Source: Muriicola sp. Z0-33 (GTDB lineage Bacteria > Bacteroidota > Bacteroidia > Flavobacteriales > Flavobacteriaceae). From it: a DNA stretch of 64,000 bases. The notes under the pieces were generated by a model, which made no database searches, had not been told where the DNA came from, and was given only the letters and a program-made list of their open reading frames with translations. Shown here piece by piece: positions 9,996-26,552 of the stretch; position 1 is the first letter of the stretch; each line of letters opens with the position of its first letter. The translations under genes and the position numbers were made by a program. The stretch lies in NCBI RefSeq assembly GCF_026126425.1, contig NZ_JAFMPW010000001.1, positions 186,001-250,000 on the forward strand, written 5' to 3'.

Positions 9996-10029
9996 TTTTT
10001 GCCAATTTAAAATATCGCCACTCAAAAAA

Positions 10030-10591: not shown

Positions 10592-10642
10592 ATTTAAGGC
10601 GATTACCTGACTTATATCATTTCAAGGAAAGGAGCTCAGGAA

Positions 10643-10650
10643 TATCTTTG
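10643..10650 (+). promoter_or_regulatory. Perfect -7 element before the WG-repeat gene
   Basis: TATCTTTG matches the Bacteroidota -7 consensus TAnnTTTG exactly and lies 24 bases before the ATG at 10674. A weak -33 (TTC, 10621-10623) stands at the expected distance. Confidence 0.6.
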
Positions 10651-10673
10651 TTGAAACGTTAAATCTCAAAGTT

Positions 10674-11333
10674 ATGAAACGTATCTATGCTTTATTATTT
10701 GTTGTATTAATTGCTTTACCATTTGCTGGAAAAACACAGGTTATAGAGTCGATCAACAAACCAATTCTTGACGAATTGGATGAGGTCAGGCCTTTTAGTG
10801 AAGGTCTTGCCGCGGTCAGAAAAGGAAACCAATGGGGATTCATAAATACTGAAGGGAAATTGGTTATCGATTTCAGGAGTGATCTGGTCTGGAGTACTGA
10901 GGCCGATACATCTAAGATGGATATACGAGGGATACGCTATCCGGAATTTCTGGATGGTTTGTGCATGAATCAGGCACTTACCGATGAGGGGATACCGCTC
11001 TATGGATTTATAAATTCCAAAGGAGAGCAGCTTATTCAACCAGAATTTGTAAACATAACCCAATTTGAGAACGGCAAAGCCATTGGAATCTTTGCAAAAA
11101 AAACTTTCAGAGGGCAGAATGAAATTAAATTAAATGTCTTTGACTATAGTTTTATTGAGGTCCTTATAAATACCCAGGGAGAAATTCTTTGGCCAATTAT
11201 GGAGAGAGACCACATTTTAATGTCAACAAGACGATTTGAGTTACCACTACTCAGGTCTAAATTGCTTTCAGATGGACTTCTTGCTTCGAAAAACAAAAGC
11301 AATGAATGGGAAATACACAGACTTAGCTTATAA
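10674..11333 (+). CDS. Secreted WG-repeat protein
   Basis: A 219-residue protein with a cleavable signal peptide (MKRIYALLFVVLIALPFAGKTQ) followed by WG repeats: FSEGLAAVRKGNQWGFINTEGKLVID is a textbook unit, and YGFINSKGEQLIQPEF a second. A third, degenerate unit (VLINTQGEILWPI) follows. WG repeats are beta-rich modules of unclear biochemical role, usually in envelope proteins. With only three units it is short for the family. It is 17 bases upstream of the GyrI-like gene on the same strand, so both are probably one transcript from the promoter at 10643. Confidence 0.85.
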   Translation: MKRIYALLFVVLIALPFAGKTQVIESINKPILDELDEVRPFSEGLAAVRKGNQWGFINTEGKLVIDFRSDLVWSTEADTSKMDIRGIRYPEFLDGLCMNQALTDEGIPLYGFINSKGEQLIQPEFVNITQFENGKAIGIFAKKTFRGQNEIKLNVFDYSFIEVLINTQGEILWPIMERDHILMSTRRFELPLLRSKLLSDGLLASKNKSNEWEIHRLSL

Positions 11334-11350
11334 GACACAAATTTCTGGTT

Positions 11351-11911
11351 ATGAGAGCAGCTAAAATCACACTCCTGATCATTGGGTCACTGTTGCTTGT
11401 GCTCTTCTTAATTTATGGTTACTACGGTGGTTTTTATCCTGTTAGAGCTGAAATTCAACAAAAGGGCGGGGAAGTCCTGGTGTATCAAAAGATGACAGGG
11501 GATTATGCACAAAGCCCCGATGTTTCGGACAAGGTGTACAACAAATTATTAAGAGAATATAACATTACAACAACCCGGGGATTTGGAATCTATTACGATC
11601 ATCCCAAAACTACAGATAAGGATAGCCTAAGGGCGGATGTGGGCTGTATTCTGGAGTCTGATTTTGAAAAAGTAGAACACCTCAGGGCAGATTTCGAAGT
11701 AAAAGAATACCCCAATGATAATTATTTGGTGGCAGATTTTCCTTTTAAAGGGATGCCATCGGTAATTTTTGGAATTATGAAAGTATACCCTGCCTTGAAT
11801 ACCTACGTGGAAGAGAATGGTTATGATCCAAATACACCGGTAATGGAAATTTGGGATCTGTCTAATAATAAGATTGAGTATAGAAAAGAACTTGTCAAAA
11901 TTCAGAATTAA
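11351..11911 (+). CDS. Membrane-anchored GyrI-like small-molecule-binding protein
   Basis: 186 residues with one N-terminal membrane helix (about 6-27, ITLLIIGSLLLVLFLIYGYY) and a soluble domain resembling the GyrI-like/SOUL effector-binding fold: the start EVLVYQKMTGDYAQ, the central GFGIYYDHPKTTDKDSLRADVGCIL and the end PVMEIWD. In this fold the GIYYDxP and DVGC segments line a hydrophobic cavity that binds amphipathic molecules. There is no helix-turn-helix, so it is not a transcription factor; an envelope binding or transport role is inferred. It follows the WG-repeat gene by 17 bases. Confidence 0.82.
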   Translation: MRAAKITLLIIGSLLLVLFLIYGYYGGFYPVRAEIQQKGGEVLVYQKMTGDYAQSPDVSDKVYNKLLREYNITTTRGFGIYYDHPKTTDKDSLRADVGCILESDFEKVEHLRADFEVKEYPNDNYLVADFPFKGMPSVIFGIMKVYPALNTYVEENGYDPNTPVMEIWDLSNNKIEYRKELVKIQN

Positions 11912-11959
11912 ATGGCTGTAGGATTTTTACGGTCAGCAGCCAAACACTAACCTAATACC

Positions 11960-11987
11960 AGAAAAGAGGGCATTTGCCCTCTTTTCT
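11960..11987. terminator. Bidirectional terminator between convergent genes
   Basis: A perfect 12-bp stem (11960-11971 with 11976-11987) around a 4-base loop ATTT. Each strand has an A run before and a T run after the stem, so it can stop transcription from both the GyrI-like gene and the NTF2-like gene at 12008. Confidence 0.9.
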
Positions 11988-12007
11988 AATATATACCTTA
12001 TAAGGAA

Positions 12008-12937
12008 TTACTTGGCATCCATTATTTTTGTGCTGATATAGGCATTAGACCTAACAATTTTTCCTTCATCGTTAAAGTCGTGGATATATAGCGCTGGCAT
12101 TACAATTTTTTTACCGTCAGACTTCCTGGTCATTCTAAAATTCCACCAGGATTGTACAGTTTGTCCGTCGCCCAGGTCATACTCCAGGTAATCAGGATAC
12201 CCAACTACGTCTATACTGGTGATATCAAAAGCCTCCATCACTCCTTTATTACGTTCCTTTAATTCATCGAGGGTCATGGTTTCTCCTACAGGAGATTCCA
12301 ATGAATTAAACCTGCATTTCTCATCAAAATAACTATAGGCCATTTCCAGGTCGTTATTTTCAAAGGCACTCATCATTCTCCTTACCTTGTTGATGTAGTC
12401 ATGATGGTCATAAAGTTTTCCATTCTCCCGATCTCCATAACTGCGGCCAATCTCACGCCAAACATTTTGGTTGGTGTAATTTATTAAAGTTTTAATCTTG
12501 TTATCAGCATTAAACTCCATCAACTGATGAAAAGGCATGTCTATTTTTACACCCGTTTCATTATGAACACCTTTATACTGGCTCCAGGTCTGAACCCAAA
12601 TCTGCCCGTCCTTATATTCGAGCGCATCTGGGTAGGCTCCCGGAGATGCACTTATTGAACCGTAAGCGATATTGTTCTTCCACCATTTGACATTATTAAG
12701 ATATTGTTCTTTAGTTCTTCCCGTATTGTTCTTGTTTGTGCTTGTACCGTTATAGGCCTTAAAATCATCAGCCAGATAGCTTGCCACCTTTGTTTCATCC
12801 CCTGCCACAAATGCAGCCATCATGTCATTGGCTATTTCTATGGTTGGGTGATCCTGATAAATGGTGCCGTTTTTTTTCTTTTGAGCCTGGGCTACTGTAA
12901 ATACCAGCAGTAGGGCCAGTAATAGTAATTTCTTCAT
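12008..12937 (-). CDS. Secreted protein with two SnoaL/NTF2-like domains
   Basis: The start at 12937 (MKKLLLLALLLVFTVAQAQ) is preferred because it gives a clean signal peptide; an upstream ATG at 12973 would add twelve unlikely residues. The mature protein of about 290 residues contains two SnoaL-like (NTF2-fold) domains in tandem, roughly 30-160 (IANDMMAAFVAGDETKVASYLADDFKAY) and 175-305 (VRRMMSAFENNDLEMAYSYFDEKCRF). Each has the helix-then-sheet start and a QTWSQYKG/QSWWNFRM strand near its end. The family includes small-molecule isomerases and pure binding proteins; no catalytic residue is decisive here. It is monocistronic. Confidence 0.85.
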   Translation of the reverse strand: MKKLLLLALLLVFTVAQAQKKKNGTIYQDHPTIEIANDMMAAFVAGDETKVASYLADDFKAYNGTSTNKNNTGRTKEQYLNNVKWWKNNIAYGSISASPGAYPDALEYKDGQIWVQTWSQYKGVHNETGVKIDMPFHQLMEFNADNKIKTLINYTNQNVWREIGRSYGDRENGKLYDHHDYINKVRRMMSAFENNDLEMAYSYFDEKCRFNSLESPVGETMTLDELKERNKGVMEAFDITSIDVVGYPDYLEYDLGDGQTVQSWWNFRMTRKSDGKKIVMPALYIHDFNDEGKIVRSNAYISTKIMDAK

Positions 12938-14549: not shown

Positions 14550-17276
14550 TTAACCTTTTCCTATAGCCGCATGTGCAGCCGCCACCCTGGCTATGGGCAC
14601 CCTAAAGGGCGAACAGCTCACATAATTCATATCATTATTATGACAGAATTCTACTGAACTGGGCTCTCCCCCATGCTCTCCACAGATACCTACCTTTAAT
14701 TTTGGTTTTATTTTCCGGCCTTTTTCGGTGGCCATTTTAATTAATTGACCTACTCCTTCCTGATCTAATTTTTCGAAAGGATCTGCCTTAAGGATTCCTT
14801 TTTCCAGATAGATTGGCAAGAACTTACCGGCATCATCACGAGAATACCCATAGGTTAATTGTGTAAGGTCATTGGTTCCAAAAGAGAAAAAGTCGGCCTT
14901 TTTTGCAATTAGATCTGCCATCAACGCCGCTCGTGGAACCTCTATCATAGTGCCAACCAAATAGGGAATAGTGTCGTCATATTCTTTAAAAACTGTATCG
15001 GCAGTTTTCCGAATAATCTCCTCCTGGGCTATAAATTCATTTAAGGTACTCACCAGAGGAACCATAATTTCCGGTTTGGCCTCTATGCCTTTGGCCTTGA
15101 GATTAAGTGCGGCCTCTAGTATGGCCCTGGTTTGCATTTCGGTAATTTCCGGAAAGGTATTTCCCAATCTACATCCCCTGTGTCCAAGCATTGGGTTAAA
15201 TTCCTGAAGTTCCGCAACTTTATTTTTTACGGCAGATAGTGAGATGTGCATATCTTCGGCCAATTCTTTTTGAGTGGCCAACTGGTGTGGTACAAATTCG
15301 TGCAGGGGTGGGTCTAACAATCGTACGGTAACCGGAAGTCCTTGCATGGCCTCGAAAATTCCTTCAAAATCACTTCGTTGCATTGGTAATAAATCTTCCA
15401 AAGCATGTCTGCGACCTTTCACAGTGTCTGCCAGTATCATTTCGCGCATGGCTTTTATCCGATCTACTTCAAAGAACATATGTTCGGTCCTGGCAAGGCC
15501 AATACCTTTTGCACCAAATTTCCTTGCCGCACGGGCATCTTTAGGGGTATCTGCGTTGGTACGAACTGCCATTGTTGCATATTTATTGGCTATTTTCATT
15601 ATCTCGCCAAACTCTCCGCTTAGCTCCGGCTCTATTGTAGCCACTTTTCCTTCAATTATATTACCAGTGGTACCGTTCAAAGAAATCCAGTCTCCTTCAT
15701 GATATTCCTTGCCGTCGACAGTTAGCAAACGATTTTTGTAATCTATTTTTAATGCGCCGGCACCAGAGATACAACATTTACCCATACCTCTTGCCACAAC
15801 CGCGGCGTGGGAGGTCATCCCGCCCCTGGCAGTCAGAATACCTTTGGCCAGGTTCATTCCTTCCAGGTCTTCCGGCGAGGTTTCAATACGCGTAAGGATG
15901 GTATTTCTGAATTTTCTCGCCTCATCTGCAAAGAAGACGATCTGACCGGTGGCTGCTCCGGGAGAGGCAGGCAGGCCCTGTTCAATAATCGTTGCACGTT
16001 TTAATGCGTTGGGATCAAATACCGGATGCAACAGTTCATCCAATTTATTGGGCTCAATACGCAGTAAAGCCTGCTTTTCATCAAGTAGTCCTTCTTTTAA
16101 AAGATCTATCGCGATTTTGACCATTGCTGATCCGGTGCGCTTTCCATTCCTGGTCTGTAATATCCAAAGTTTTCCACTCTGAATGGTGAACTCCATATCC
16201 TGCATATCTTTATAATGCTGCTCCAATATGTTTTGATATTTAAAGAGTTCTTTATAGATATCTGGCATTAATTCTTCTAAAGAGATATAGTTTTCAGCCC
16301 GGTCAGATTCTTCAATTTTGGCTAGTTGTGCCCAACGCTGAGACCCCATTTTCGTAATCTGTTGTGGGGTTCTTACTCCTGCCACCACATCTTCGCCTTG
16401 TGCATTTAAAAGGTATTCCCCATTAAATCTATTTTCACCATTACCGGCATCCCTTGTAAAACACACTCCTGTACCGCAACCGGCACCCATATTCCCGAAA
16501 ACCATGGCCTGTACATTTACTGCAGTTCCCCAATCGTCCGGGTAGTCGTGCATTTTTCTATAGTAAATGGCCCTTGCCCCATTCCAGCTATTGAATACTG
16601 CGATAATGGCGCCCCAGAGCTGCTCCCAGGGATCTGTTGGAAAGTTCTGACCAGTGCTTTTTTGAATAACGTCTTTAAAGTCGTACACCAGATCCTTAAG
16701 GTCCTGGATTGTAAATTGGGTATCGTGTTGAATCTCCCTTTTTTCTTTAAGGTGTTCTATAATTTCTTCAAAAGGATCAATATCTTCTTTAGACTGCGGC
16801 TTCATTCCCAGGACCACTCCTCCATACATCTGAATAAACCGACGATAAGAATCCCAGGCAAATCTTTCATTGCCTGTCTTTTCTGCAATACCTATTACGG
16901 CCTCGTCGTTAAGTCCAAGATTCAAAACAGTATCCATCATCCCAGGCATGGAAACACGTGCGCCGGAGCGAACAGAAATTAAAAGCGGGTTTTTGGTATC
17001 ACCGTATTGGGCTCCCATTATGCCCTCCATATTTTTTATTGCCTTTTCAACTTCGGGGGTAATTAACCCTATTATCGCCTCCTGCCCGAGTTCATTGAAT
17101 TCTTTACAGACTTCTGTAGTAATTGTAAATCCTGGCGGGACTGGGATTCCTAAGGAACTCATTTCTGCCAAGTTGGCCCCCTTTCCGCCCAAAAGATTCT
17201 TCATTGTGCTGTTGCCATCTGCACTATTGTTACCAAACTCGTAGACTCTTGCGGCGATTTCCTGAATTGTTTCCAT
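14550..17276 (-). CDS. ppdK: Pyruvate, phosphate dikinase
   Basis: A full-length (908 aa) enzyme that interconverts pyruvate + ATP + phosphate with phosphoenolpyruvate + AMP + pyrophosphate in the cytoplasm. Order: N-terminal nucleotide-grasp domain (LGGKGANLAEMSSLGIPVPPGFTI, SVRSGARVSMPGMMDTVLNLG), the swivelling phospho-histidine domain with His490 in GGMTSHAAVVARG, and the C-terminal PEP/pyruvate barrel with catalytic Cys865 in GICGEHGGEP. All key residues are intact. PPi-dependent PPDK usually serves glycolysis or gluconeogenesis flux control. A TGA-N6-TCA palindrome lies 65 bases upstream of the start (17342), hinting at Crp/Fnr-type control. Confidence 0.97.
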   Translation of the reverse strand: METIQEIAARVYEFGNNSADGNSTMKNLLGGKGANLAEMSSLGIPVPPGFTITTEVCKEFNELGQEAIIGLITPEVEKAIKNMEGIMGAQYGDTKNPLLISVRSGARVSMPGMMDTVLNLGLNDEAVIGIAEKTGNERFAWDSYRRFIQMYGGVVLGMKPQSKEDIDPFEEIIEHLKEKREIQHDTQFTIQDLKDLVYDFKDVIQKSTGQNFPTDPWEQLWGAIIAVFNSWNGARAIYYRKMHDYPDDWGTAVNVQAMVFGNMGAGCGTGVCFTRDAGNGENRFNGEYLLNAQGEDVVAGVRTPQQITKMGSQRWAQLAKIEESDRAENYISLEELMPDIYKELFKYQNILEQHYKDMQDMEFTIQSGKLWILQTRNGKRTGSAMVKIAIDLLKEGLLDEKQALLRIEPNKLDELLHPVFDPNALKRATIIEQGLPASPGAATGQIVFFADEARKFRNTILTRIETSPEDLEGMNLAKGILTARGGMTSHAAVVARGMGKCCISGAGALKIDYKNRLLTVDGKEYHEGDWISLNGTTGNIIEGKVATIEPELSGEFGEIMKIANKYATMAVRTNADTPKDARAARKFGAKGIGLARTEHMFFEVDRIKAMREMILADTVKGRRHALEDLLPMQRSDFEGIFEAMQGLPVTVRLLDPPLHEFVPHQLATQKELAEDMHISLSAVKNKVAELQEFNPMLGHRGCRLGNTFPEITEMQTRAILEAALNLKAKGIEAKPEIMVPLVSTLNEFIAQEEIIRKTADTVFKEYDDTIPYLVGTMIEVPRAALMADLIAKKADFFSFGTNDLTQLTYGYSRDDAGKFLPIYLEKGILKADPFEKLDQEGVGQLIKMATEKGRKIKPKLKVGICGEHGGEPSSVEFCHNNDMNYVSCSPFRVPIARVAAAHAAIGKG

Positions 17277-17598
17277 GATGTAGATGTTTAGATCGACTAG
17301 TTACAAGCTTTAAAATTATAAACAACAGGGATGCTATTTTATGACTTATATCACACTATTGGATAATAATTTGAGCAATTTCAAAGGGTGATGATAATGG
17401 AAATAAAATGACGTGGCCCGTCATCACTGTATGCGTCGAAAAACACAATTTGTTTTTATTCCCCGTTGAATGTGGGTTTATATTCCAATTTTAAGCTTTT
17501 GGCAGGAAGCCAATTTACTAAGATGAGGTTTCACTATTTCTATTTTCTCTTTGTTAAACCAATTTCTTGCTTAACTTTATTTACATAATTTGATAGCT
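17277..17598. other. Intergenic region ppdK / small membrane proteins
   Basis: About 320 bases between divergent genes. Apart from the palindrome at 17342 I see no ORF, strong hairpin or perfect -7 element. Confidence 0.35.
17342..17353. promoter_or_regulatory. TGA-N6-TCA palindrome upstream of ppdK
   Basis: TGACTTATATCA is an inverted repeat in the form typical of Crp/Fnr-family operators. Related sites occur upstream of the cytochrome c (60188) and universal stress protein (61174) genes. Confidence 0.5.
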
Positions 17599-17781
17599 AT
17601 GCTCAAAAACTTTGTTAAAGCAATAGGACCTGTAAATGTCCTTATGCTGTTGCTTGTCATTTCCATTATTATTGTTGCGGAAATTACTTTTATCAATGGC
17701 CAAAAACTCGAAGCCATATTTATTGGATTATGGGCTCCCACAATTTTAGGATTTATGAACTATCTAAAAAGACCTAAATAA
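17599..17781 (+). CDS. Small membrane protein (60 aa)
   Basis: The ATG at 17599 (MLKNFVKAIGPVN) is preferred over an in-frame TTG at 17590. The product has one or two hydrophobic segments (VLMLLLVISIIIVAEITFI, then LEAIFIGLWAPTILGFMNYL) and a basic tail (KRPK), typical of a tiny inner-membrane protein. Its stop TAA shares one base with the ATG of the following 34-codon frame (TAATG), an arrangement of translational coupling. No family recognised. Confidence 0.6.
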   Translation: MLKNFVKAIGPVNVLMLLLVISIIIVAEITFINGQKLEAIFIGLWAPTILGFMNYLKRPK

Positions 17782-17885
17782 TGGAGATCATAATAATCTA
17801 TTCTATAATAGTGGCAATAGTCTTCCTTATATGGCTAAGTTATATCATTCGGGTTTATGATCAGAATTACCGAAATAAGGGATAA
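17781..17885 (+). CDS. Tiny membrane protein (34 aa), coupled to the previous frame
   Basis: The frame starts at the ATG overlapping the previous stop by one base and codes for a single hydrophobic helix (MEIIIIYSIIVAIVFLIWLSYII) followed by a short charged tail (RVYDQNYRNKG). The overlap and the clean helix-plus-tail pattern argue that it is translated. It may act as a partner subunit of the 60-aa protein. It ends 28 bases from the convergent DoxX gene. Confidence 0.5.
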   Translation: MEIIIIYSIIVAIVFLIWLSYIIRVYDQNYRNKG

Positions 17886-17913
17886 CGGAAAGTAAGAGTT
17901 AGAATTATTAGCG

Positions 17914-18336
17914 CTATTTCTGCATCTTCAGGTAATAATCTGCCGAATGTTTGCCGGAACCATAGAAAAGAAAAAATATACATGCTGCTAATACTATCAG
18001 GGCCATAATTAAATTATTGCCGTTCATCTCGCCAATGAAATTAATGAGTACCGCGCCAAATAATAAGGGAAGTTGTAATAAGGCGGCCCACCTGGTTAGT
18101 AAACCAACAATGATCAGAAAGCCTCCTACAAAATGAGCGGCAACCACGTAGTGCATGGTCAACCAACTTCCGGGGATCTCCTCGAAAGGTTCCATGACCT
18201 CAGTCATAAGTTCAGGATTCGACATAAAACTAATTCCTTTGGCAATAAGAAATACGCCCAATGCCACCCTTAAAAGGTCCAAAAGGTAATAGGTATGAGC
18301 ATTAGCCCACTTATTCCATGTCTTAATCCTGCCCAT
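17914..18336 (-). CDS. DoxX family membrane protein
   Basis: 140 residues with four hydrophobic segments and the DoxX pattern: LDLLRVALGVFLIAKGISFM at the start, HYVVAAHFVGGFLIIVGLLTRWAALLQLPLLFGAVLIN in the middle. DoxX proteins are small inner-membrane proteins linked to quinone-dependent oxidation or oxidative stress in other bacteria; the function here is only inferred from the family. It is divergent from the cassette at 18472, with an inverted repeat between the two starts (18361-18393). Confidence 0.85.
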   Translation of the reverse strand: MGRIKTWNKWANAHTYYLLDLLRVALGVFLIAKGISFMSNPELMTEVMEPFEEIPGSWLTMHYVVAAHFVGGFLIIVGLLTRWAALLQLPLLFGAVLINFIGEMNGNNLIMALIVLAACIFFLFYGSGKHSADYYLKMQK

Positions 18337-18360
18337 AAATCAGAATTATGAATCTACAAC

Positions 18361-18393
18361 ATCTCCTCATAAGGTACTCATTTATAAGGAGAT
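18361..18393. promoter_or_regulatory. Inverted repeat in the doxX / PBP-cassette divergent region
   Basis: ATCTCCTCATAA (18361-18372) pairs with TTATAAGGAGAT (18382-18393), 11 of 12 positions, around a 9-base spacer. It sits between the two divergent starts and could be an operator for either gene. Confidence 0.4.
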
Positions 18394-18471
18394 AAACAAA
18401 ACTTTTATCTCAAAATGTCCCTAAAAGTTATTAGCAGAGATAAACCTTTAAACCACATAAACACTATTTAA

Positions 18472-18672
18472 ATGAAATTGGGACAAAATCTTTTTAAGAA
18501 AGATCAATCTATTTGGGGAAAACCTATAATTGAATACGATCAGGGCAAAATGAACGAACTGTTTTCAGAGATCGGGCAATCTGAAATTGGGGAGGCCAAA
18601 TCAATTCTTCCGGAAGTACCAGGCCAGAGAGTGTCTCTGGAAACCGAACTGTATTTACTGCTACATTATTAA
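18472..18672 (+). CDS. Small protein of unknown function, first gene of the PBP cassette
   Basis: 66 residues, soluble, without signal peptide or membrane helix. It begins MKLGQNLFKKDQSIWGKPIIEYDQGKM and continues with an acidic middle; no family recognised. It is followed after 18 bases by the coiled-coil membrane protein gene, and its own leader contains the inverted repeat at 18361. Position and spacing suggest that it belongs to the five-gene operon ending at 23467. Confidence 0.65.
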   Translation: MKLGQNLFKKDQSIWGKPIIEYDQGKMNELFSEIGQSEIGEAKSILPEVPGQRVSLETELYLLLHY

Positions 18673-18690
18673 CAGCCTAATCTGATCATC

Positions 18691-19896
18691 ATGGTATTTT
18701 CAAATCAGCAATTAAAGAATATGGCTTATCGGGCCGCAAACCTGGGAATGAAGCCACAGCAAGATTTCATCCTAGATGAAAAGAAGATCATCAACGGATA
18801 TAAAACAAAGAAGTATTTCCTGAATGAAAGAATTGGAGAGCTTGGAGAGTCGCTCTCCGAGCACTTTCATAAAATGGAAATTGTCAAAGGCCAGTTGTCT
18901 AAAGAAGTAGTGGCACTCAATAAGGCTAAAACACAAGCCATAGAGGAGGAGATAATCACCTTAAAGGGCAATATAGCTCATCAGAAAATTCAAATTAAGG
19001 AGCATATTCGGCGCTGTCATTTAAATGGGGATGATCTTAAATGCATGTATAACGTTGATGAGATCACCGCCCTGGAAGACTTTGAACCCATTGTAATAAA
19101 GCCCACTCCAAAACTGAAAACACGTCCGAAGAGGATTCCACTCTGGCTACTTTACCTTGTGGAAGTGATCTTTATATTTGGGGAGGGGATACTATTTTAT
19201 AACATATTAACCGAAACACATGACCTTCCCGAAATTATTCTAAGAAGCGTGTTTTTTATTCCCATTGTCTTTGCAGCCAGCTTCCTTACCTCGAGGAGAA
19301 TTTCTTTACGCTGGGTATGGTTACCAATTTTGCTGATTCTCAGTGTTTATGCCATCTTATCATTTACTGTGATGGAGTGGTATTTTTCATCGCTTGCATT
19401 AGACGAGACCCTGACCTTTACTTCCTTTTTTATTAAAAATGGTTTCCTGATTCTTGGAGCAGTAATGATGGTTACCCTTGCACTATTCCTGACGAACGCT
19501 GTTAAAAGTATTTATAGCAGAAAAGATGCAAAAGTTAAACCGAAAAAGCCAGAATCGTTACCCGTAAAAGGAAAGGATTCTCCACAACAGCTCGATCTTA
19601 ATTTGAAATTTCATGAGCTCAAAGGAGCATACAAACTCCTGAGTAAATTGCAAGATCAGTTGACTGCATCTCATGAAGCAGGGAAAAACGAATTCAGGCG
19701 CATCCTGGGAGATGTGTCCGTGCTCCAAAACAAGACCACAGGTATATCTTCAGAAATTGGGGACTGTGAAAAGGAATTAGGGGCTCTCGAGATTAGTTCA
19801 TTCGAGGAAATTAATAAATATCGGGAGCATTTTGAAAACTATAGTAACGGACAGGGCCCGATTCACTGGAAGAATTTCGATTTTACACAGATATAG
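18691..19896 (+). CDS. Coiled-coil membrane protein of the PBP cassette
   Basis: 401 residues with a symmetrical plan: a charged helical N-terminus likely to form coiled coil (about 55-125, Lys/Glu-rich with heptad-like spacing), four hydrophobic segments in the middle (about 149-171, 185-205, 208-228 and 245-270), and a second helical, charged C-terminus (about 300-385). No signal peptide, so both helical arms are probably cytoplasmic. The two arms could form a scaffold or touch a cytoplasmic partner. No family recognised. It is separated from the vWA-like gene by 6 bases. Confidence 0.75.
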   Translation: MVFSNQQLKNMAYRAANLGMKPQQDFILDEKKIINGYKTKKYFLNERIGELGESLSEHFHKMEIVKGQLSKEVVALNKAKTQAIEEEIITLKGNIAHQKIQIKEHIRRCHLNGDDLKCMYNVDEITALEDFEPIVIKPTPKLKTRPKRIPLWLLYLVEVIFIFGEGILFYNILTETHDLPEIILRSVFFIPIVFAASFLTSRRISLRWVWLPILLILSVYAILSFTVMEWYFSSLALDETLTFTSFFIKNGFLILGAVMMVTLALFLTNAVKSIYSRKDAKVKPKKPESLPVKGKDSPQQLDLNLKFHELKGAYKLLSKLQDQLTASHEAGKNEFRRILGDVSVLQNKTTGISSEIGDCEKELGALEISSFEEINKYREHFENYSNGQGPIHWKNFDFTQI

Positions 19897-19902
19897 ATCA
19901 CT

Positions 19903-20634
19903 ATGAAAAAATTAATCATATTATTCGTTTTAGTCCTCCTGGCATTCGTTGGTGAAAGTTGCGAAACCGAATGCGAAACCGTCACGACCAGAAATATTAC
20001 TGTCCTGGTAGATGCCACAGATTCATTGCTTATCACCAAGGCACAGAACGAATTGCGCCAGGAGAATTTTGAGCAACTTATCAATCAGCAGCTGGGTCTT
20101 AAGGATGGTCCAAAATGCTTTACTGTTAACTACGATTTTGGGATTATCTCTACCCATAGCTTTTATAACCCTGTCTCTACTGCTTTGTCTCATACCAATT
20201 GGGGTGAAGCCAGAAACAAACTAATTCTCAGGTGGCGGGATTTTTACAAAGTACACGAAGATAATTTGCAGCGCCTGGATTCTGTTGGGGTTATGGATAA
20301 AACCTCTCTTTTTCCCACGCTTATGAAGGCTATTAATAAGACAGATGGAACGGTGATAGTCGTCAGCGATCTAATCGAAAACAATCCTGTGGTAAATTTC
20401 TATAAAAGTCCTCCTACCACAGTAGAGGAAATGGATAAGGCATATAGAGATATGGTAGGTTATTATTTACCAGACCAAATTGGCCCAGGTGCTGAAAGAG
20501 AGGTAATTTTTATTGTGATGTCCGAGCCGAAAGATTCGGGTGTTGTGCATAAGGCAAGGGCCTTTTGGAAATATGCGCTGGAACAGAACCTCGGACTTAA
20601 TGTGTCTTTTTCGGACGGCTTATCTACGCTTTAA
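19903..20634 (+). CDS. vWA-like envelope protein of the PBP cassette
   Basis: 243 residues. The N-terminus is a hydrophobic signal peptide ending at Cys20 (FVGESC), an imperfect lipobox, so lipid anchoring is likely but not certain. The mature domain begins ITVLVDATDSL, where Asp37-x-Thr39-x-Ser41 occupies the place of the MIDAS motif (usual form DxSxS) of a von Willebrand factor A fold; a later strand GTVIVVSDLIEN fits the strand that supplies the third metal-ligand Asp. vWA domains bind protein partners through a metal ion. It is 2 bases from the next gene. Confidence 0.75.
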   Translation: MKKLIILFVLVLLAFVGESCETECETVTTRNITVLVDATDSLLITKAQNELRQENFEQLINQQLGLKDGPKCFTVNYDFGIISTHSFYNPVSTALSHTNWGEARNKLILRWRDFYKVHEDNLQRLDSVGVMDKTSLFPTLMKAINKTDGTVIVVSDLIENNPVVNFYKSPPTTVEEMDKAYRDMVGYYLPDQIGPGAEREVIFIVMSEPKDSGVVHKARAFWKYALEQNLGLNVSFSDGLSTL

Positions 20635-20636
20635 TC

Positions 20637-21518
20637 ATGCCCGCTGTTGTAGTTTATCTGGCACTCATTTTCCTGGCTTTACTGGGCTGTATTCTTTTGT
20701 ATATTCCAAGGAAGAATTGGTTTAATTTAAGAGTTGCCAGGGAAGAAGGATGGGGAACCCTGGTGATCTTGCTGATAGGTATGGGGACCAGTATGTTGTG
20801 TTTTCTCTTCAGTAAATTACTTTTCTCTGCCCTTTGTCTTGGGATATCATCAAGTATTATAGAATACAATATCCTGATGAATAATGTGTACTGGTACGGA
20901 TCGGAATTGCTTTCTCCAATAAGAAGCATAAAATATCCCATTTCGTATTTTGGACTTCATACCATAGCGTACTTCTCCGGATTATATGCCTTGCTGTTTT
21001 GCCTAAGCAAACTCAATATCAGGTCTAGGTACAATCTATCGCATGATAAATTGAAACTACAGTTTATGTGCCTTGGATTGTTTATGTTTTTTGAAACATT
21101 ACTCTATGTATCGTACCCATTTCAAACTTTTGCCAGTGGTTGGCGTATTTTCCACAACTTCTTTGCTGTATTCCTTGCTCGTATTCATTTTACAGCATGT
21201 CTTTTTATAGCTGCCTGGTTGCAGTTTCACCACCCCTGGGTGAAGATCGCACTAAAATCCAAGGTGCTTTCCGTCAGATACTATTGGCTTTCCGGGGTAT
21301 TCTTGACCCCCAGGAATACTGTCGTGTTTTTTGTTGCCCTGGGAGCCATGTTTTTATTACCGGCCTACATCAGAATGTATTCACAAACTGAGTTCGGACT
21401 AATTATCTCACTATTGTTTAACGGAGGCCTTCTTTTAGTATTCTGGCGTTGGGTGAGCCCCGCAATTTATCATTTAATTCGTTTTATATCGGATTTCGAA
21501 AAACGCAAAGCCTTATGA
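20637..21518 (+). CDS. Polytopic membrane protein of the PBP cassette
   Basis: 293 residues with about seven hydrophobic segments from residue 5 onward (VVVYLALIFLALLGCILLYI first, LIISLLFNGGLLLVFWRWV last) and short basic loops (KSKVLSVRYYW, FEKRKAL). No transporter or enzyme motif is recognisable. Its TGA stop overlaps the next start codon (ATGA at 21515-21518), so translation of the penicillin-binding protein is coupled to it. It could be a membrane platform for the PBP and the vWA-like protein. Confidence 0.75.
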   Translation: MPAVVVYLALIFLALLGCILLYIPRKNWFNLRVAREEGWGTLVILLIGMGTSMLCFLFSKLLFSALCLGISSSIIEYNILMNNVYWYGSELLSPIRSIKYPISYFGLHTIAYFSGLYALLFCLSKLNIRSRYNLSHDKLKLQFMCLGLFMFFETLLYVSYPFQTFASGWRIFHNFFAVFLARIHFTACLFIAAWLQFHHPWVKIALKSKVLSVRYYWLSGVFLTPRNTVVFFVALGAMFLLPAYIRMYSQTEFGLIISLLFNGGLLLVFWRWVSPAIYHLIRFISDFEKRKAL

Positions 21519-23467
21519 TCCAAAAGATCGAAAAATTGTTGAATATTACCTTAAGCGATTGGGTTAAAGCCATAATTATTATCGCAGGGGTATTTCTATC
21601 ATTGATCCTGTTCCACATCTTATGGCCTTCTAAAATGAGGTTAGAGCCCAATGTTCATTTTATATCCTCTGTAAGAGACGAAAATCACCATCTACTGGCC
21701 GTATTTGGAAAAAATACGGTGCTTAATAATCGTTTAACAGCCGAGGAAATCCATGAAATGGATGCCAGGGGAATCCTTAACAAGTACCCTATTGTCCCGG
21801 TTTTATCCTATGAGGAATTGCCAGAGAATTACATTTACTTTTTAACCAGGGTGGAAAACAAAAACTTCTTTGGTTCAGGAAAGGATAACGTTTATGGGAT
21901 GTCTGTTTCAGGAGTGGCCAGATTGTTTAAGGGCAAGGCAGATGGGGGTTCAAATATTCCTCAGCAGTTACTGAAGAATGCTATTCACAAAAAGGAAGGT
22001 CTGGGAACAATCTATTTATCCCGGAAGTATGGAGAACAATTGGCAGCTTTTCAAATGGTTAAGTCGGCCAGCCCACAGGAAATACTAATGGCCTATACCA
22101 ATTATTCTGGCAATTTCTGGTACGAGAAAGATTTCTCCGGACTCATACTGGCTTCTTATGCCATTTTTAACAGGCCCCCGCATGAATTGAATGATCTGGA
22201 GATGTTGCTAACTGTAAGAACTTTAAAGAATGCCCGGGATCTCAGAATGCTCTGTGATGATAAGTTTGAAAATGCAGCGGTAATAAAGCAACAGGTCATA
22301 TCTTACTTTGCGCTTATTGCCGAAGATTCTCAGGAAGACAAAACACGTTTAAAGGCAATGCGAGGAATGGAGTTGAGGTTTGCTGAAAGAAACGGACTAA
22401 GAAAGACCACTGCATTGACCAATTTTTTTAGTAAAAACAGGGGGAAAACCAAAAGACGGTTTGCTTTGCAATATATTTCTTCAATTAAGAGGGATAATCA
22501 ATTAAAATTAGATGAGGCTGTTGGCCTTTTTTCAAAACGATTTCGATCTCAATTAGAGAAGCAAGGATATGATCTGGAGGTTTCACTCATTGCTTTGGAT
22601 ATTAAGAGTGGGCGTATTGAAGCCGCGCTGGGCAATAGGAAAAACAGTGGGGCTATGGCCAACTTTACGGACTATGGAGACGGATTTCAATGTGGATCCG
22701 TTTTAAAACCCCTGGTATTTTTAGAACTGTTCGAGAATTATGATTTTAATAGTAACAGTAAATTATTCAATGGAAATTTAGAGGAGTACAAGTACAACCC
22801 AAGTAACTTTAATAACAATCTTTTAAACCAGGATGTGTCTGTGCGAGACGTATTAAAGTACAGCCTCAACAAGGCCGCGGTTAATTATCGGGTAAAGGCC
22901 AATCCGCTTGAAGTGGCCAGGAGAGTAGAAAGAAAACTTTCTAAAATGGAAATACCTTCAAACCCCTCTTACAGCCTTGGAGAATCTTATATACTTGGCA
23001 CCAAAACCATGACCCCATGGGAAGTAGCCCAGGCCTATCAGATGCTTTTTAATGATGGTAAAGCTGTTGAATTAAGTCCGTGGAAATACATAATAGATCC
23101 CCATTTACAGGATACCATAGTTGATGGGAATAGTGTAAAAACAAAATCTATTTACACTTCAGAATCAGCCAGCAATTTAAAATCTGTCTTGAGTGCGGCT
23201 TTCGAACGTGGAGGAACTTGCCACAGATTACTTAAAATCTTACCAAAAGACAGAAACTATTATGGTAAGACAGGAACTACAGGAAAAGCGAAAGATGGCT
23301 GGACTGTCATAAGTGACGGACAAAAGTTGGTTATAGCCTGGGCCGGTTACGTAAAAAACGACGAAGGTATTCTGAAAAGGAAAGATGCCCCTGCCGTTCC
23401 CTCCAAATCCGGAGCTGGATCTGCAGGGATACTGGCTGCAATGACATATTCCAAATTGTATAATTAG
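21515..23467 (+). CDS. Bifunctional penicillin-binding protein, transglycosylase + transpeptidase
   Basis: 650 residues, starting at the ATG that overlaps the previous stop; an earlier in-frame start at 21449 would lie inside that gene. One membrane anchor (about 18-36) precedes a GT51 transglycosylase domain with Glu114 (VENKNFF, for the usual EDxxFY), a GGSNIPQQLLKN motif and the second acidic site Glu189 in SPQEILMAY. The transpeptidase domain has Ser395-x-x-Lys398 (GSVLK), Ser450-Leu-Asn452 and Lys585-Thr-Gly587. All catalytic motifs are present but the sequences are divergent from housekeeping PBP1 (usual forms PGSTFKP, SSN), so this is probably a specialised peptidoglycan synthase with its own partner genes. 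Confidence 0.88.
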   Translation: MIQKIEKLLNITLSDWVKAIIIIAGVFLSLILFHILWPSKMRLEPNVHFISSVRDENHHLLAVFGKNTVLNNRLTAEEIHEMDARGILNKYPIVPVLSYEELPENYIYFLTRVENKNFFGSGKDNVYGMSVSGVARLFKGKADGGSNIPQQLLKNAIHKKEGLGTIYLSRKYGEQLAAFQMVKSASPQEILMAYTNYSGNFWYEKDFSGLILASYAIFNRPPHELNDLEMLLTVRTLKNARDLRMLCDDKFENAAVIKQQVISYFALIAEDSQEDKTRLKAMRGMELRFAERNGLRKTTALTNFFSKNRGKTKRRFALQYISSIKRDNQLKLDEAVGLFSKRFRSQLEKQGYDLEVSLIALDIKSGRIEAALGNRKNSGAMANFTDYGDGFQCGSVLKPLVFLELFENYDFNSNSKLFNGNLEEYKYNPSNFNNNLLNQDVSVRDVLKYSLNKAAVNYRVKANPLEVARRVERKLSKMEIPSNPSYSLGESYILGTKTMTPWEVAQAYQMLFNDGKAVELSPWKYIIDPHLQDTIVDGNSVKTKSIYTSESASNLKSVLSAAFERGGTCHRLLKILPKDRNYYGKTGTTGKAKDGWTVISDGQKLVIAWAGYVKNDEGILKRKDAPAVPSKSGAGSAGILAAMTYSKLYN

Positions 23468-23758
23468 TTTATTTTCGCTAGCTTTAAATTATTGATCAAT
23501 AAACATTTAACAAGAAGAATTTATTCGAAATAAAGATTACTTGCTACCTGATATCAGTGCTTAAACACGAATTAAGCAACCGCAAAGACCATTTATTTTT
23601 ACATAATGGAACCTTACTCATGCGTTCCGCGGTTTGCGCCATTGAATCGCTCTGCTCGTCTTTATATTCTTTAATCTCGTCAAGTCATTTGTTCTGCAAG
23701 TTATTTGAGTTTCCAGGAAGGTGGATCCAAACTTTGATCAGGAGTACATGCAAAAAAG

Positions 23759-24178
23759 ATGAATAAGTTGCATAAAAAAAAGGATGCTGGAAAAATCAGC
23801 AATACTGAAACGGGTGCTATTCCCCAGGGCATAGATTTGCCTTCAACTTCTGAACTCTACTACAACAAACTAGGGGCAAATTTGTTGTTGCTTTATCAAT
23901 TCTATCTCCGCCAAGAAACTTTACTTGAACCCGAAATTAAAATGGCCCTTTGGAGGATGATTCAGCTTAATGAAGATTTTCGAGGGAAGATTCGGCTATT
24001 GCATCTGGAATATTTAGAGAAAGACACAGTAAATCTGGATGCCGGTTGGGAGGATGTCAAGGCATTTTTATTCCCCATGAAAGAAGAGCCAGAAGCAATA
24101 ACGCATCATATTGAAAGAGATCATCGGATAGTGGAGTATAAAGAGGTAGTATCCGAACTTCTGAGTTTAAACATTTAA
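23759..24178 (+). CDS. Hypothetical protein (139 aa)
   Basis: Soluble, without signal peptide. The N-terminus is Lys-rich and probably disordered; the middle (LYYNKLGANLLLLYQFYLRQETLLEPEIKMALWRMIQLNEDFRGKI in pieces) is helical and Leu-rich. No family recognised. A gap of 290 bases separates it from the PBP gene, so it may have its own promoter. Its stop overlaps the stop of the convergent gene on the other strand by two bases. Confidence 0.65.
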   Translation: MNKLHKKKDAGKISNTETGAIPQGIDLPSTSELYYNKLGANLLLLYQFYLRQETLLEPEIKMALWRMIQLNEDFRGKIRLLHLEYLEKDTVNLDAGWEDVKAFLFPMKEEPEAITHHIERDHRIVEYKEVVSELLSLNI

Positions 24179-24894
24179 ATGGCCAGCTTTGTTCTTAAGC
24201 CAAGCAGGTGCTTTTCTATAATTTTAGGGTCTACCGTTTTGTTTATTGGCAATTTATAACAATCGATAATCGCCGGCAGCAGGCTTCTGGCAATTTTCTG
24301 AGCAATTTTTTTACCCTGACGGCAAATCCATTTCCTCTGAGCTTCAAATTCTGATTTTTCAACACCTTTTATGATTTCGGGCAATTTATGTCCGTCTATA
24401 TAACGCTTTCTTAAATACTCTTTCCTGGCAGGGTCAAAGTTGGATAATTCTATCCAGTCTTTTACACTTCTGCTCATCTCTGCCAACACAGTATTTTTAT
24501 GTTCGCCCCAAAGGGTTTCAAATACTCCGGGCTCTGATGCTTTTTGCTCCCAGCTGACGTCTTCTTTAAAAGGTAATTTACAGCTTAAGGTGTTGGTATA
24601 ATCTATGCAAAGGTTCTTAATGACTGGGAAATAGTAAGAGGTAATTAGTGCGGTGCATTTTTCTGGCACCAACTTTCCAGATTGAAATCGTTTTTGCTCC
24701 TTGAGATAGAGGTCGGAAAAAACACTTTTGGCATGGCCGTCCAAATCCTGATTAAGTCCGAGGGTAAGCAGCCAATATTTAATTAGTGGTTCAACAGAGG
24801 AATAATACTCGCGATACTTTTCAGTATTGCCAGGATCTTTCAAAAAAGCGTAGACTTTATTCCACGAGGTATTGTAAGATGGTTTGAGCCCCAT
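24175..24894 (-). CDS. Divergent sigma-factor-like protein
   Basis: 239 residues, soluble. I do not see a textbook match, but two parts recall ECF sigma factors: near residues 50-100 a region-2-like order (HAKSVFSDLYLKEQKRF, later VIKNLCIDYTN), and near 155-200 a region-4-like helix-turn-helix (KEYLRKRYIDGHKLPEIIKGV followed by a basic recognition-type helix). The spacing fits a 200-residue sigma factor with an extra C-terminal tail. Function as a sigma factor is inference; an alternative is an unrelated helical DNA-binding protein. It stands alone, convergent with the 139-aa gene. Confidence 0.6.
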   Translation of the reverse strand: MGLKPSYNTSWNKVYAFLKDPGNTEKYREYYSSVEPLIKYWLLTLGLNQDLDGHAKSVFSDLYLKEQKRFQSGKLVPEKCTALITSYYFPVIKNLCIDYTNTLSCKLPFKEDVSWEQKASEPGVFETLWGEHKNTVLAEMSRSVKDWIELSNFDPARKEYLRKRYIDGHKLPEIIKGVEKSEFEAQRKWICRQGKKIAQKIARSLLPAIIDCYKLPINKTVDPKIIEKHLLGLRTKLAI

Positions 24895-25184
24895 TGATCA
24901 AAATTTGGTCTAATCGGTTGTTGAAAAAACGTGTTCTCAAGCAGTTTTTAAAGTAATTGTTCTAAATACGAAGTTTTTAGAGAGGCTCTTATTTATAACG
25001 GAATCTTTAGCTACTTATTTTAAGTAGCAACCATAAATGAACCGAATTTCAAAGAAATCCAATGAAGGGAATAGAATTCTGTTCCCAAATTGCATTTATG
25101 AACAAGACCTGCACCCAATAGTTGATATTTACTACCTTAGGAGACTATTGGGATTTGCGTTGAAATTATCAACATCTATTTTTT
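24895..25184. other. Intergenic region before the GH144-type gene
   Basis: No convincing gene. A perfect 7-bp hairpin GCTACTT/AAGTAGC with a 5-base loop lies at 25010-25028, without a T run, so it is not a clear terminator. Confidence 0.35.
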
Positions 25185-26552
25185 ATGATTCACTTATCTA
25201 TCAGGCTCTTAAAAAAAACGGCACTTATAGCAACGTTCATTTTTGTTGGATGTAGCGGCCAGGATAATGATGGCAAGGATAAGAACAATACCCAACAGAG
25301 CAGCAGTATTACAGATGAGGAGCTTTTGGATCTTGTGCAAAGGGAAACCTTCAGGTATTTCTGGGAGTATGCAGAACAGACCTCTGGTTGTGCCAGGGAG
25401 AGATATCATCCTGCAACACCTTCATATGATGAAAATGTAGTCACCATAGGCGGTACAGGTTTTGGTATAATGGCCATAATAGTAGCTATGGAAAGAGGCT
25501 TTATCAGCAGGGGGGAGGGCTTGGACAGACTTTCGAAAATCCTGACGTTTCTGGAGTCGGCAGATCGTTTTCACGGTGCCTGGCCCCACTGGTTAGACGG
25601 CACCAATGGGCAGGTAATTCCTTTTAGTCCTAAGGATGATGGGGGAGACCTGGTAGAAACAGCTTTTTTAGCACAAGGGCTTATATGTGTAAAAGAGTAT
25701 CTCAAAGACGGGTTACCATCAGAGCAGGCTATTGGGGAAAAGGCTGATTTGCTTTGGAAGGAAGTAGAATGGGATTGGTATACACAAGGAAACAATGCGC
25801 TCTATTGGCATTGGAGTCCATTATATGGTTTTGATATTAACTTTGAACTAAAAGGATATAACGAAGTACTTATTACATATGTCCTGGCGGCCTCTTCCCC
25901 AAATTTTTCGATTACAAAAGAGGCGTATACCGATGGATGGGCATCCGGAGGAGATATTAAATCCGGGAACACCAAATATGACATTCCCCTTGTAGTATCA
26001 CACAATGGCGCCCAGGAATATGGAGGTCCTTTGTTCTGGGCACATTATTCCTATCTTGGCCTGAATCCGATTGGGCTGGCAGATGAGTTTGTAGATTACG
26101 GGGAAGTAAACATCAATCATGTCGGGATAAATTATGACTATTGCGTTGAAAATCCTGGAAATTTCAAGGATTATGGCGAGGATTGCTGGGGACTTACGGC
26201 CAGCTATACAAGAAATACAGATGGAAGCCTGGGGTATGCAGCACATCATCCGGCGAACGACTCAGGAGTAATAACGCCAACTGCGGCAATAAGTTCTATT
26301 CCTTATGCCCCAACCGCTTCATTAAAAGCCATGCACTATTTTTACAAAAACAAGGATAAATTACTTGGGCCTGCTGGGTTTTACGACGCCTTTAGTCCGG
26401 AAAACGATTTCTGGGTTGCAGAGGCATATTTGGCCATTGATCAGGGCCCGGAAATTATTATGATAGAAAACCATAGAAGTGGTTTACTCTGGAACTTATT
26501 TATGGGCAATGAAGATGTGCAGAACGGGCTCGGAAAGTTGGGATTTGACTAA
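25185..26552 (+). CDS. Glucoamylase-like (PF10091) lipoprotein, GH144-type beta-1,2-glucanase
   Basis: 455 residues. A signal peptide with lipobox Cys23 (FVGCSG) anchors it in the outer envelope. The catalytic part is the (alpha/alpha)6 glycoamylase-like fold: LLDLVQRETFRYFWEYAEQTSG, the GGTGFGIMAI motif, FHGAWPHWLDG, DGGDLVETAFLAQGL, LYWHWSP, FWAHYSYLGLNP and the C-terminal AYLAIDQGPEIIMIENHRSGLLW, all typical of GH144. Characterised members are endo-beta-1,2-glucanases, so cleavage of beta-1,2-glucan is the best guess. It precedes an EEP-family gene by 34 bases, probably in one operon. Confidence 0.85.
   Translation: MIHLSIRLLKKTALIATFIFVGCSGQDNDGKDKNNTQQSSSITDEELLDLVQRETFRYFWEYAEQTSGCARERYHPATPSYDENVVTIGGTGFGIMAIIVAMERGFISRGEGLDRLSKILTFLESADRFHGAWPHWLDGTNGQVIPFSPKDDGGDLVETAFLAQGLICVKEYLKDGLPSEQAIGEKADLLWKEVEWDWYTQGNNALYWHWSPLYGFDINFELKGYNEVLITYVLAASSPNFSITKEAYTDGWASGGDIKSGNTKYDIPLVVSHNGAQEYGGPLFWAHYSYLGLNPIGLADEFVDYGEVNINHVGINYDYCVENPGNFKDYGEDCWGLTASYTRNTDGSLGYAAHHPANDSGVITPTAAISSIPYAPTASLKAMHYFYKNKDKLLGPAGFYDAFSPENDFWVAEAYLAIDQGPEIIMIENHRSGLLWNLFMGNEDVQNGLGKLGFD

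What the first reader, a model, noticed from the sequence alone, without database searches (positions are those of the whole stretch)
18472..23467. Five-gene operon built around a divergent bifunctional PBP, with vWA-like and coiled-coil membrane partners
Seen: five genes with gaps of 18, 6, 2 and -4 bases; the last codes for a GT51/transpeptidase with all catalytic motifs but atypical sequences (VENKNFF, GSVLK, SLN). Known: housekeeping PBP1 genes are not encoded in such operons. Inferred: a dedicated peptidoglycan-synthesis machine in which the vWA-like lipoprotein (DATDS) binds a partner, the polytopic protein is a platform and the coiled-coil protein signals from the cytoplasm. I know no described system of this composition.
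Basis: partly seen in the sequence, partly recalled or inferred. Interest (0 to 1): 0.8.

Follow-up and report, generated by a model that had tools for sequence, protein, structure and literature searches.

The report
Dedicated cell-wall synthase gene cluster
A small group of related bacteria carries a rare, tightly linked set of seven genes that looks like an extra cell-wall building machine with its own membrane partners, a likely regulator and its own control switches; it has not been tested in the laboratory.

Summary
The five genes are real, at the stated coordinates and gaps. The unit is larger: in 14 of 14 unique loci of related Bacteroidota, A-B-C-D-E is followed by a small gene F and a convergent gene G; no other flanking ORF family (90 aa or more) is shared by more than 3 loci. 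C has a vWA fold. E is a class A PBP in a separate clade, about 22% identical to the genome's two conventional class A PBPs. G is weakly sigma-factor-like. Different promoter-like elements precede A and G, each found once in the 4.15-Mb genome. In 199 family genomes, C and the E-type PBP occur in the same 5. One of these has a diverged version with a multi-TM domain fused to the PBP. C behind a B-like gene also occurs without the PBP, among Rhs-like genes and beside mobilisation genes. Best reading: a sigma-controlled accessory peptidoglycan synthase, C as periplasmic adaptor, B and D as membrane platform. Activity and association are untested. New variant of a known kind.

The parts
18416..18446 (+). 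promoter-like element TGTCCCnAAA-N13-GATAwACC, 25 bp before gene A
   Evidence: A shorter form of the pattern occurs once in the whole own genome, reversed control 0; full pattern 0 in 100 shuffles of the window; upstream of A in 14 of 14 unique loci: 11 exact, L016, L017 and L023 with 1-2 mismatches (chance matches at up to 3 mismatches 0.09-0.14 per locus)
18472..18672 (+). gene A, 66 aa small protein without TM segment, ends (V/I)S(L/V/M)ET.LYL.L
   Evidence: present in 14 of 14 loci; no match in Pfam, NCBIfam, PADLOC or PHROGs at E <= 1
18691..19896 (+). gene B, 401 aa: 4-TM membrane protein with long charged N- and C-terminal parts, likely coiled coils (by eye; no coiled-coil predictor was run)
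   Evidence: Kyte-Doolittle segments at 151-169, 182-200, 209-227, 253-271; alignment; only weak family matches, best a PHROG of unknown function at 0.0056
19903..20634 (+). gene C, 243 aa lipoprotein with vWA fold and MIDAS-like D37/T39/S41...T134...D156
   Evidence: AF2 pLDDT 74.5, pTM 0.74; listed structural matches are mostly proteins known for vWA domains, Z 9.9-10.9; alignments; weak sequence matches only (PHROG 0.0065, NCBIfam 0.092)
20637..21518 (+). gene D, 293 aa polytopic membrane protein
   Evidence: 6 Kyte-Doolittle TM segments; 72-82% identity to the other 13; no family match at E <= 1; model too poor to search, pLDDT 54.7
21515..23467 (+). gene E, 650 aa divergent class A PBP (TM anchor 19-37, GT51, transpeptidase)
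   Evidence: Pfam; NCBIfam; motif alignment; tree
23759..24178 (+). gene F, 139 aa protein without TM segment, the most variable of those aligned
   Evidence: next to E in 14 of 14 loci; 30-47% identity; no family match at E <= 1
24175..24894 (-). gene G, 239 aa sigma-70/ECF-like protein, tail-to-tail with F (ORFs overlap by 4 bases)
   Evidence: 14 of 14 loci; 10 of 14 members hit TIGR02937 at E <= 0.1, best 1.1e-4; 3 hit Sig70_bacteroi1, best 6.7e-5; window copy 0.037; no Pfam sigma match
24994..25021 (-). promoter-like element AAAATAAGT-N12-CGTTATA upstream of G
   Evidence: The shorter pattern occurs once in the whole own genome, here; its reversed control also had 1 hit; longer pattern with up to 2 mismatches: 1 match, 7 of 100 shuffles had one; exact shorter form in 12 of 14 unique loci

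Best explanation
A dedicated, conditionally expressed accessory peptidoglycan synthase. E polymerises and crosslinks peptidoglycan, probably under conditions or at sites that the two housekeeping class A PBPs do not serve. C, a periplasm-facing vWA lipoprotein, acts through its metal-site face as adaptor or activator of E. B (4 TM with likely cytoplasmic coiled coils) and D (polytopic, directly before E in the operon) form the inner-membrane platform that carries or places E. G is a sigma factor that switches on the A-E operon (with A and F as small modulators) from a promoter used only here, so the machine is made on demand, for example under envelope stress. Shown: gene content, order, conservation, fold of C, motif retention, genome-unique promoter-like elements, co-occurrence of C and E. 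Inferred: coiled coils, complex formation, activation by C, sigma control of this operon, stress role.
For: A-B-C-D-E-F plus convergent G in 14 of 14 unique loci, while other flanking families (ORFs of 90 aa or more in the stretches held) are shared by at most 3. C and the E-type PBP (E <= 1e-35) occur in the same 5 of 199 family genomes; in the family and phylum samples no E-type PBP was seen without C. In the diverged G050 version the order B-like, C, PBP persists, and the PBP carries an N-terminal multi-TM domain in the place of D. E groups with the G050 PBP (BLAST 7.6e-44; 5e-22 or weaker to the other reference PBPs) and apart from six PBP1A/1B/1C-type and own-genome PBPs (100/100). The PBP1b positions E233, Q271, K274, E290, K355 and the transpeptidase SxxK, SxN, KTG motifs are kept in the 9 window-type proteins compared. 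The genome has two conventional class A PBPs, so E is accessory. Genome-unique elements before A and G, the latter with a CGT box as in flavobacterial ECF promoters (PMC9723704, passages).
Against: No direct evidence of interaction or activity. The GT51 domain has lost several usual residues: D234 is N/S, H240 is S/F/I, T267 is N, and the R372 region is gapped, so polymerase activity may be altered. C also occurs without this PBP in two distant genomes, so it cannot be PBP-specific everywhere. The fused N-terminal region of G050 has no detectable sequence similarity to D. B of the window has no firm similarity to the distant B-like proteins. G scores below NCBI's cut-off for sigma-70/ECF. The elements before A and G differ, so which one G reads, if either, is unknown. 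The A element is absent from the G050 locus, as are A, F and G by tblastn. B-C and D-E gaps reach 220 and 177 bases in some loci, so one transcript is not certain there. The 14 loci are from related bacteria, and 12 of them were fetched by D.
Confidence: 0.5

Rival explanations
1. The core is a transplantable B-C envelope module (vWA lipoprotein plus 4-TM protein) of mobile or conflict-related elements. Here it has taken over a PBP, as part of a defence or competition system that detects damage to the envelope and rebuilds the wall.
For: C behind a B-like gene recurs without D or E: between Rhs/YD-repeat-like genes in G516 and beside a T4SS coupling protein, a NikA-like protein (below cut-off) and a relaxase in G873, another family of the class. 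C homology is firm to fair (hhalign P 3e-14 G050, 2e-11 G516, 6e-5 G873). Distribution is rare: C in 5 of 199 family, 2 of 296 order, 3 of 395 phylum (one of them spurious) and 2 of 395 class genomes. Flanks vary.
Against: No PADLOC match for the seven proteins. No relative found in viral contigs (B, C, D, E), in phages (window C, G873 B) or in plasmids (B and C of the distant genomes only). No toxin, nuclease or integrase family match among the seven proteins.
Confidence: 0.25
2. E is mainly a crosslinking or repair enzyme: the transpeptidase is the working part, and the GT51 domain is degenerate or has another substrate preference. (This does not exclude the best explanation.)
For: Transpeptidase motifs fully kept, whereas D234, H240, T267 and the R372 region of the GT51 site are changed in the 9 window-type proteins compared.
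Against: The positions E233, E290, Q271, K274 and K355 are kept in these proteins, and the GT region stays highly conserved among the 14 window-type proteins, which is not how a dead domain usually looks.
Confidence: 0.3
3. An ordinary accessory class A PBP in a clade-specific operon whose other genes serve unrelated envelope tasks; they are co-transcribed but make no joint complex.
For: The 14 window-type loci come from related bacteria; pbpC-yfhM shows an accessory PBP in an operon with a partner of another kind.
Against: The unit alone is kept while flanks turn over; the diverged B-like, C, PBP order in G050; matching occurrence of C and E in 199 genomes.
Confidence: 0.15

Closest known systems
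PBP1A-LpoA / PBP1B-LpoB (and PBP1B-LpoP) of gamma-proteobacteria
   Same: A class A PBP paired, here by inference only, with a dedicated lipoprotein (PMC4632607, passages; LpoP from a listing)
   Different: The lipoprotein has a vWA fold and is encoded in the same cluster; E lies far below the NCBIfam cut-offs of PBP1A (141.6 vs 508.75 bits) and PBP1B (116.1 vs 717.75); two multi-TM proteins, two small proteins and a sigma-like gene are added
pbpC-yfhM (PBP1C with bacterial alpha-2-macroglobulin)
   Same: An accessory class A PBP in an operon with an inner-membrane-anchored periplasmic partner, proposed for defence and repair (PMC4498604, passages)
   Different: Partner is a macroglobulin, not a vWA lipoprotein; the two PbpC proteins compared fall outside the E clade; no membrane platform genes annotated beside them
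mag operon of Pseudomonas aeruginosa (Type II macroglobulin complex)
   Same: A six-gene envelope complex in which one TM protein (MagB) anchors a periplasmic partner (PMC5764988, passages)
   Different: The passages seen name no PBP, vWA lipoprotein or sigma factor among its products
ECF sigma factors of Bacteroidota
   Same: G has weak sigma-70/ECF-like matches, and the element before it has a CGT box as in flavobacterial ECF promoters
   Different: G's window copy is below the curated cut-off and is set convergent to an operon led by a different, genome-unique element

Membership tests
Class A penicillin-binding protein (GT51 + transpeptidase) | GT51 and transpeptidase domains over curated cut-off in one chain | tested here: met
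   62.9 vs 27 and 57.6 vs 22.1 bits
Class A penicillin-binding protein (GT51 + transpeptidase) | Transpeptidase motifs SxxK, SxN, KTG | tested here: met
   Invariant in all 15 members aligned; aligned to E. coli PBP1b for 9 window-type members and the G050 member
Class A penicillin-binding protein (GT51 + transpeptidase) | GT51 catalytic Glu at the E. coli PBP1b E233 position | tested here: met
   E in all 9 window-type members compared; in the G050 member another residue is aligned there and an EDR motif lies five columns before it
Class A penicillin-binding protein (GT51 + transpeptidase) | Glycan polymerase and transpeptidase activity | not testable with these tools
   Needs lipid II assays; D234, H240, T267 and the R372 region are changed
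PBP1A / PBP1B / PBP1C NCBIfam families | NCBIfam score over the curated cut-off | tested here: not met
   141.6 vs 508.75; 116.1 vs 717.75; 124.4 vs 494.2
Lpo-activated PBP systems | Activator belongs to the LpoA/LpoB/LpoP families | tested here: inconclusive
   C has no Pfam match and two weak NCBIfam matches below cut-off, neither an Lpo; its fold is vWA; no direct comparison with Lpo structures was made
Lpo-activated PBP systems | Lipoprotein directly stimulates the PBP | not testable with these tools
   Biochemical assay needed
pbpC-A2M operon | Alpha-2-macroglobulin gene beside a PBP1C | tested here: not met
   No macroglobulin match among the seven proteins; E is below the PBP1C cut-off and outside the branch of the two PbpC proteins
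vWA domain proteins (C) | vWA fold | tested here: met
   Foldseek best E 4.3e-4, 8 matches at E <= 0.001, modest TM-scores; VIA-align Z 9.9-10.9 over 143-174 residues, rmsd 2.6-4.6 in the 50 rows shown; that most listed proteins carry vWA domains is partly recalled
vWA domain proteins (C) | MIDAS metal site DxSxS...T...D | tested here: inconclusive
   D37, S/T39, S/T134 and D156 kept in the four subfamilies; the third position is S, T, E or N; motif recalled; metal binding not tested
ECF sigma factors (G) | NCBIfam sigma70-ECF score over cut-off | tested here: inconclusive
   Window copy 13.7 vs 42.9 bits; 10 of 14 members match at E <= 0.1, best 1.1e-4; no Pfam sigma match in 14 members
Known anti-phage defence systems | PADLOC model match | tested here: not met
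   0 matches at E <= 1 for the seven proteins

The most novel reading that the evidence does not exclude
The vWA lipoprotein and its 4-TM partner form a transplantable trans-envelope sensing and placing module. It is wired here to a private peptidoglycan synthase under a private sigma factor, and elsewhere to DNA-transfer and Rhs-type machinery, so one device decides where and when the wall is opened or rebuilt around an envelope machine or a breach.
Probability: 0.2. Interest if true: 0.78.

Novelty: new variant of a known kind. Interest (0 to 1): 0.55.

Why it matters
Lipoprotein activators of class A PBPs (Lpo) are described from gamma-proteobacteria; the word Bacteroidetes does not occur in the 2015 review of such regulators (PMC4632607, word search and passages). 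A seven-gene unit with its own vWA lipoprotein, membrane platform and sigma-like gene would be an independently evolved way to control a class A PBP. Several carriers are named strains (Maribacter, Poritiphilus, Pelagihabitans), so the control could be tested directly.

Tried and rejected
Rejected: 'E is the only class A PBP' (three GT51 genes). Rejected: 'known defence system' (0 PADLOC matches). No relatives in viral contigs (D, C, B, E), phages (window C, G873 B) or plasmids (G516 B, G050 C, G873 C and B); A, F and G were not searched there. For E, 68 plasmid records match at under 60% identity, and the 10 listed are PBP1C genes. Rejected: the C-like hit in G467, whose frame has stops; the ORFs of 150 aa or more around it show no such genes. 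Not supported: that the fused multi-TM region of the G050 PBP is a D homologue by sequence; it stands in D's place only. Weak: B of the window against the three distant B-like proteins (hhalign P 0.15 G050, 0.0044 G516, 0.062 G873), although G050 and G516 B match each other (1.5e-7) and G050 and G873 B weakly (4.8e-4). PDB sequence searches with C and G gave one doubtful match each. The D model was poor, so no fold search was made with it. No Rfam match in 17000-26000 and no tRNA in the window. The tree has long branches and the program warns that such joins may be false, so only the separation of the E clade is used, with the BLAST values beside it.

An earlier count gave 12 exact promoter matches; the correct count is 11 of 14 exact plus 3 with 1-2 mismatches. 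The motif comparison used 9 of the 14 window-type E proteins, the tree used 13 of 14. The phylum, class, order and family samples overlap in part.
Full report
What is there. The window contains five closely packed + strand genes exactly as described: A 66 aa, B 401 aa, C 243 aa, D 293 aa, E 650 aa; gaps 18, 6, 2, -4. E is a bifunctional class A PBP by Pfam, well below the NCBIfam cut-offs of PBP1A, PBP1B and PBP1C. A, C, D and F have no Pfam match at E <= 1, and B only two weak matches below cut-off. The NCBIfam and PHROG matches of B and C are weak or of unknown function, and PADLOC gives none.

The real unit is seven genes. A scan of genome contigs with D returned 12 loci, whose titles name Flavobacteriaceae bacteria, Maribacter, Poritiphilus, Pelagihabitans and one Bacteroidia bacterium. 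With the window and G102 (L010) this makes 14 unique loci. All 14 carry A, B, C, D, E, F and G in the same order. A comparison of the flanking ORFs of 90 aa or more in the stretches held found F and G in 14 of 14 and every other flanking family in at most 3 of 14. In two loci (L016, L017) other genes lie between F and G, and in some loci the B-C gap reaches 220 and the D-E gap 177 bases. G is convergent; in the window its ORF overlaps that of F by four bases. G is sigma-70/ECF-like: 10 of 14 members match TIGR02937 at E <= 0.1 (best 1.1e-4) and 3 match Sig70_bacteroi1 (best 6.7e-5). All of this is weak in the window copy itself (0.037), and Pfam gives no sigma match.

Control elements. Alignment of the stretches before A showed a conserved bipartite element TGTCCCnAAA-N13-GATAwACC. 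A shorter form occurs once in the 4.15-Mb own genome, at this site, with 0 hits for the reversed control. It is exact in 11 of 14 unique loci and present upstream of A with 1-2 mismatches in the other three, where 0.09-0.14 matches per locus are expected by chance at the looser setting used. It is absent from the G050 locus. A different element, AAAATAAGT-N12-CGTT, precedes G. It too occurs once in the genome, its reversed control also giving one hit, and is exact in 12 of 14 unique loci. A CGT box in the -10 region is what a flavobacterial transcriptome study links to ECF sigma factors, and the housekeeping consensus there is TAnnTTTG (PMC9723704, passages). Which element G reads, if either, is not shown.

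The PBP. The genome has three GT51 genes; the other two score 180.6 and 177.9 bits against 64.2 for E and are 22% identical to E. Against E. coli PBP1b the transpeptidase motifs are intact. In the 9 window-type proteins compared, the GT51 positions E233, Q271, K274, E290 and K355 are kept, but D234 is N or S, H240 is S, F or I, T267 is N, and the stretch holding R372 is gapped. The roles of E233, K355 and R372 are from PMC8119973 (passages); that the other positions matter is recalled. E may therefore be an altered polymerase rather than a dead one. In a tree of 20 PBPs the E proteins (13 of 14 used) with the G050 PBP are split from the six others at 100/100, with long-branch warnings; BLAST agrees (7.6e-44 between E and the G050 PBP; 5e-22 or weaker from E to the other reference PBPs).

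The lipoprotein. An AlphaFold2 model of C (pLDDT 74.5, pTM 0.74) is matched mostly by proteins known for vWA domains (Foldseek best E 4.3e-4, modest TM-scores; VIA-align Z 9.9-10.9 in the 50 rows shown). D37, S/T39, S/T134 and D156 are kept across four subfamilies, as in a MIDAS site (motif recalled). B has four TM segments by a Kyte-Doolittle scan, as do the three distant B-like proteins. The flanking parts look like coiled coils by eye, and the G050 B-like protein weakly matches many coiled-coil Pfam families, but no coiled-coil predictor was run. D has six TM segments by the same scan, shows the highest identities of the proteins aligned, and its model was too poor to compare.

Distribution. 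C was found in 5 of 199 family genomes, 2 of 296 order genomes, 3 of 395 phylum genomes including one spurious hit, 2 of 395 class genomes and 1 of 98 genomes of the class of G516; the own genome is counted in all but the last. G516 looks like a Chlorobia genome, which is my inference. In the own genus only this genome is held. The E-type PBP at E <= 1e-35 was found in the same 5 of 199 family genomes and in 1 of 395 phylum genomes, the own. The fifth family genome, G050, has a diverged version: a B-like protein (392 aa), C (253 aa) and a 982-aa protein whose N-terminal part is multi-TM and whose C-terminal part is the PBP. C of G050 is homologous (P 3e-14); the multi-TM part is not detectably similar to D (P 0.18). 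tblastn of A, F and G finds nothing in the 19-kb stretch of G050. C behind a B-like gene is also found without D or E in G516, after a protein with zinc-ribbon matches just below cut-off and between genes that look like Rhs/YD-repeat genes, and in G873, next to a T4SS coupling protein, a NikA-like protein (below cut-off) and a relaxase. C homology there is firm to fair (2e-11, 6e-5); B homology from the window is not.

How it most likely works. The two conventional PBPs should make E dispensable for ordinary growth. The linkage, the genome-unique elements and the sigma-like gene suggest on-demand expression. The simplest mechanism is an inner-membrane complex in which D and B hold or place E and the vWA face of C contacts E or another periplasmic partner, licensing synthesis where a signal is met. 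This works like Lpo-activated PBPs and like the pbpC-A2M pair proposed for defence and repair (PMC4632607, passages; PMC4498604, passages), but it is not shown to belong to either: C is a vWA protein, and E is in another clade. Complex formation, activation and signal are inference.

Against this reading. C with B-like partners exists without the PBP, the GT site is altered, D's counterpart in G050 is not recognisable by sequence, G is a weak sigma match, gene spacing is loose in some loci, and all 14 window-type loci are from related bacteria, 12 of them fetched by D.

Novelty. Searches of open-licence papers with terms on class A PBP, vWA, lipoprotein, operon, ECF sigma and Maribacter showed no description of such a unit in the listings; three of the lists were capped (12 of 40, 10 of 12, 8 of 14). 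Subscription papers were not searched. I rate it a new variant of a known kind.

Noticed in passing
L028 (G516) 9001-11928: A zinc-ribbon-like / B-like / C trio lies on the minus strand directly after a short Rhs-like core fragment and between two long YD-repeat-like genes (named by eye), as a displaced Rhs-associated cassette would.
   Followed up: partly
L032 (G873) 6967-12173: A B-like and C pair with a preceding 144-aa gene, in line with a T4SS coupling protein, a NikA-like protein and a relaxase: perhaps a mobilisable element with an undescribed membrane pair.
   Followed up: partly
L012 (G050) 1512-7264: Upstream of the diverged B-like, C, PBP set, on the same strand, large proteins without clear family matches and one with a weak receiver-domain match (PF00072, E 0.003).
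   Followed up: partly
window 23759-24894: F and the sigma-like G are tail-to-tail with ORFs overlapping by 4 bases; F is the most variable of the six aligned proteins (30-47% identity), as regulators or anti-sigma partners can be.
   Followed up: partly
window 24994-25021 and 18416-18446: Two different promoter-like elements, each found once in the genome, serve the two halves of the unit.
   Followed up: yes
L040 1-3375: Rhizobium plasmid pbpC overlaps the end of an alpha-2-macroglobulin family gene, much as pbpC lies beside yfhM in E. coli.
   Followed up: no
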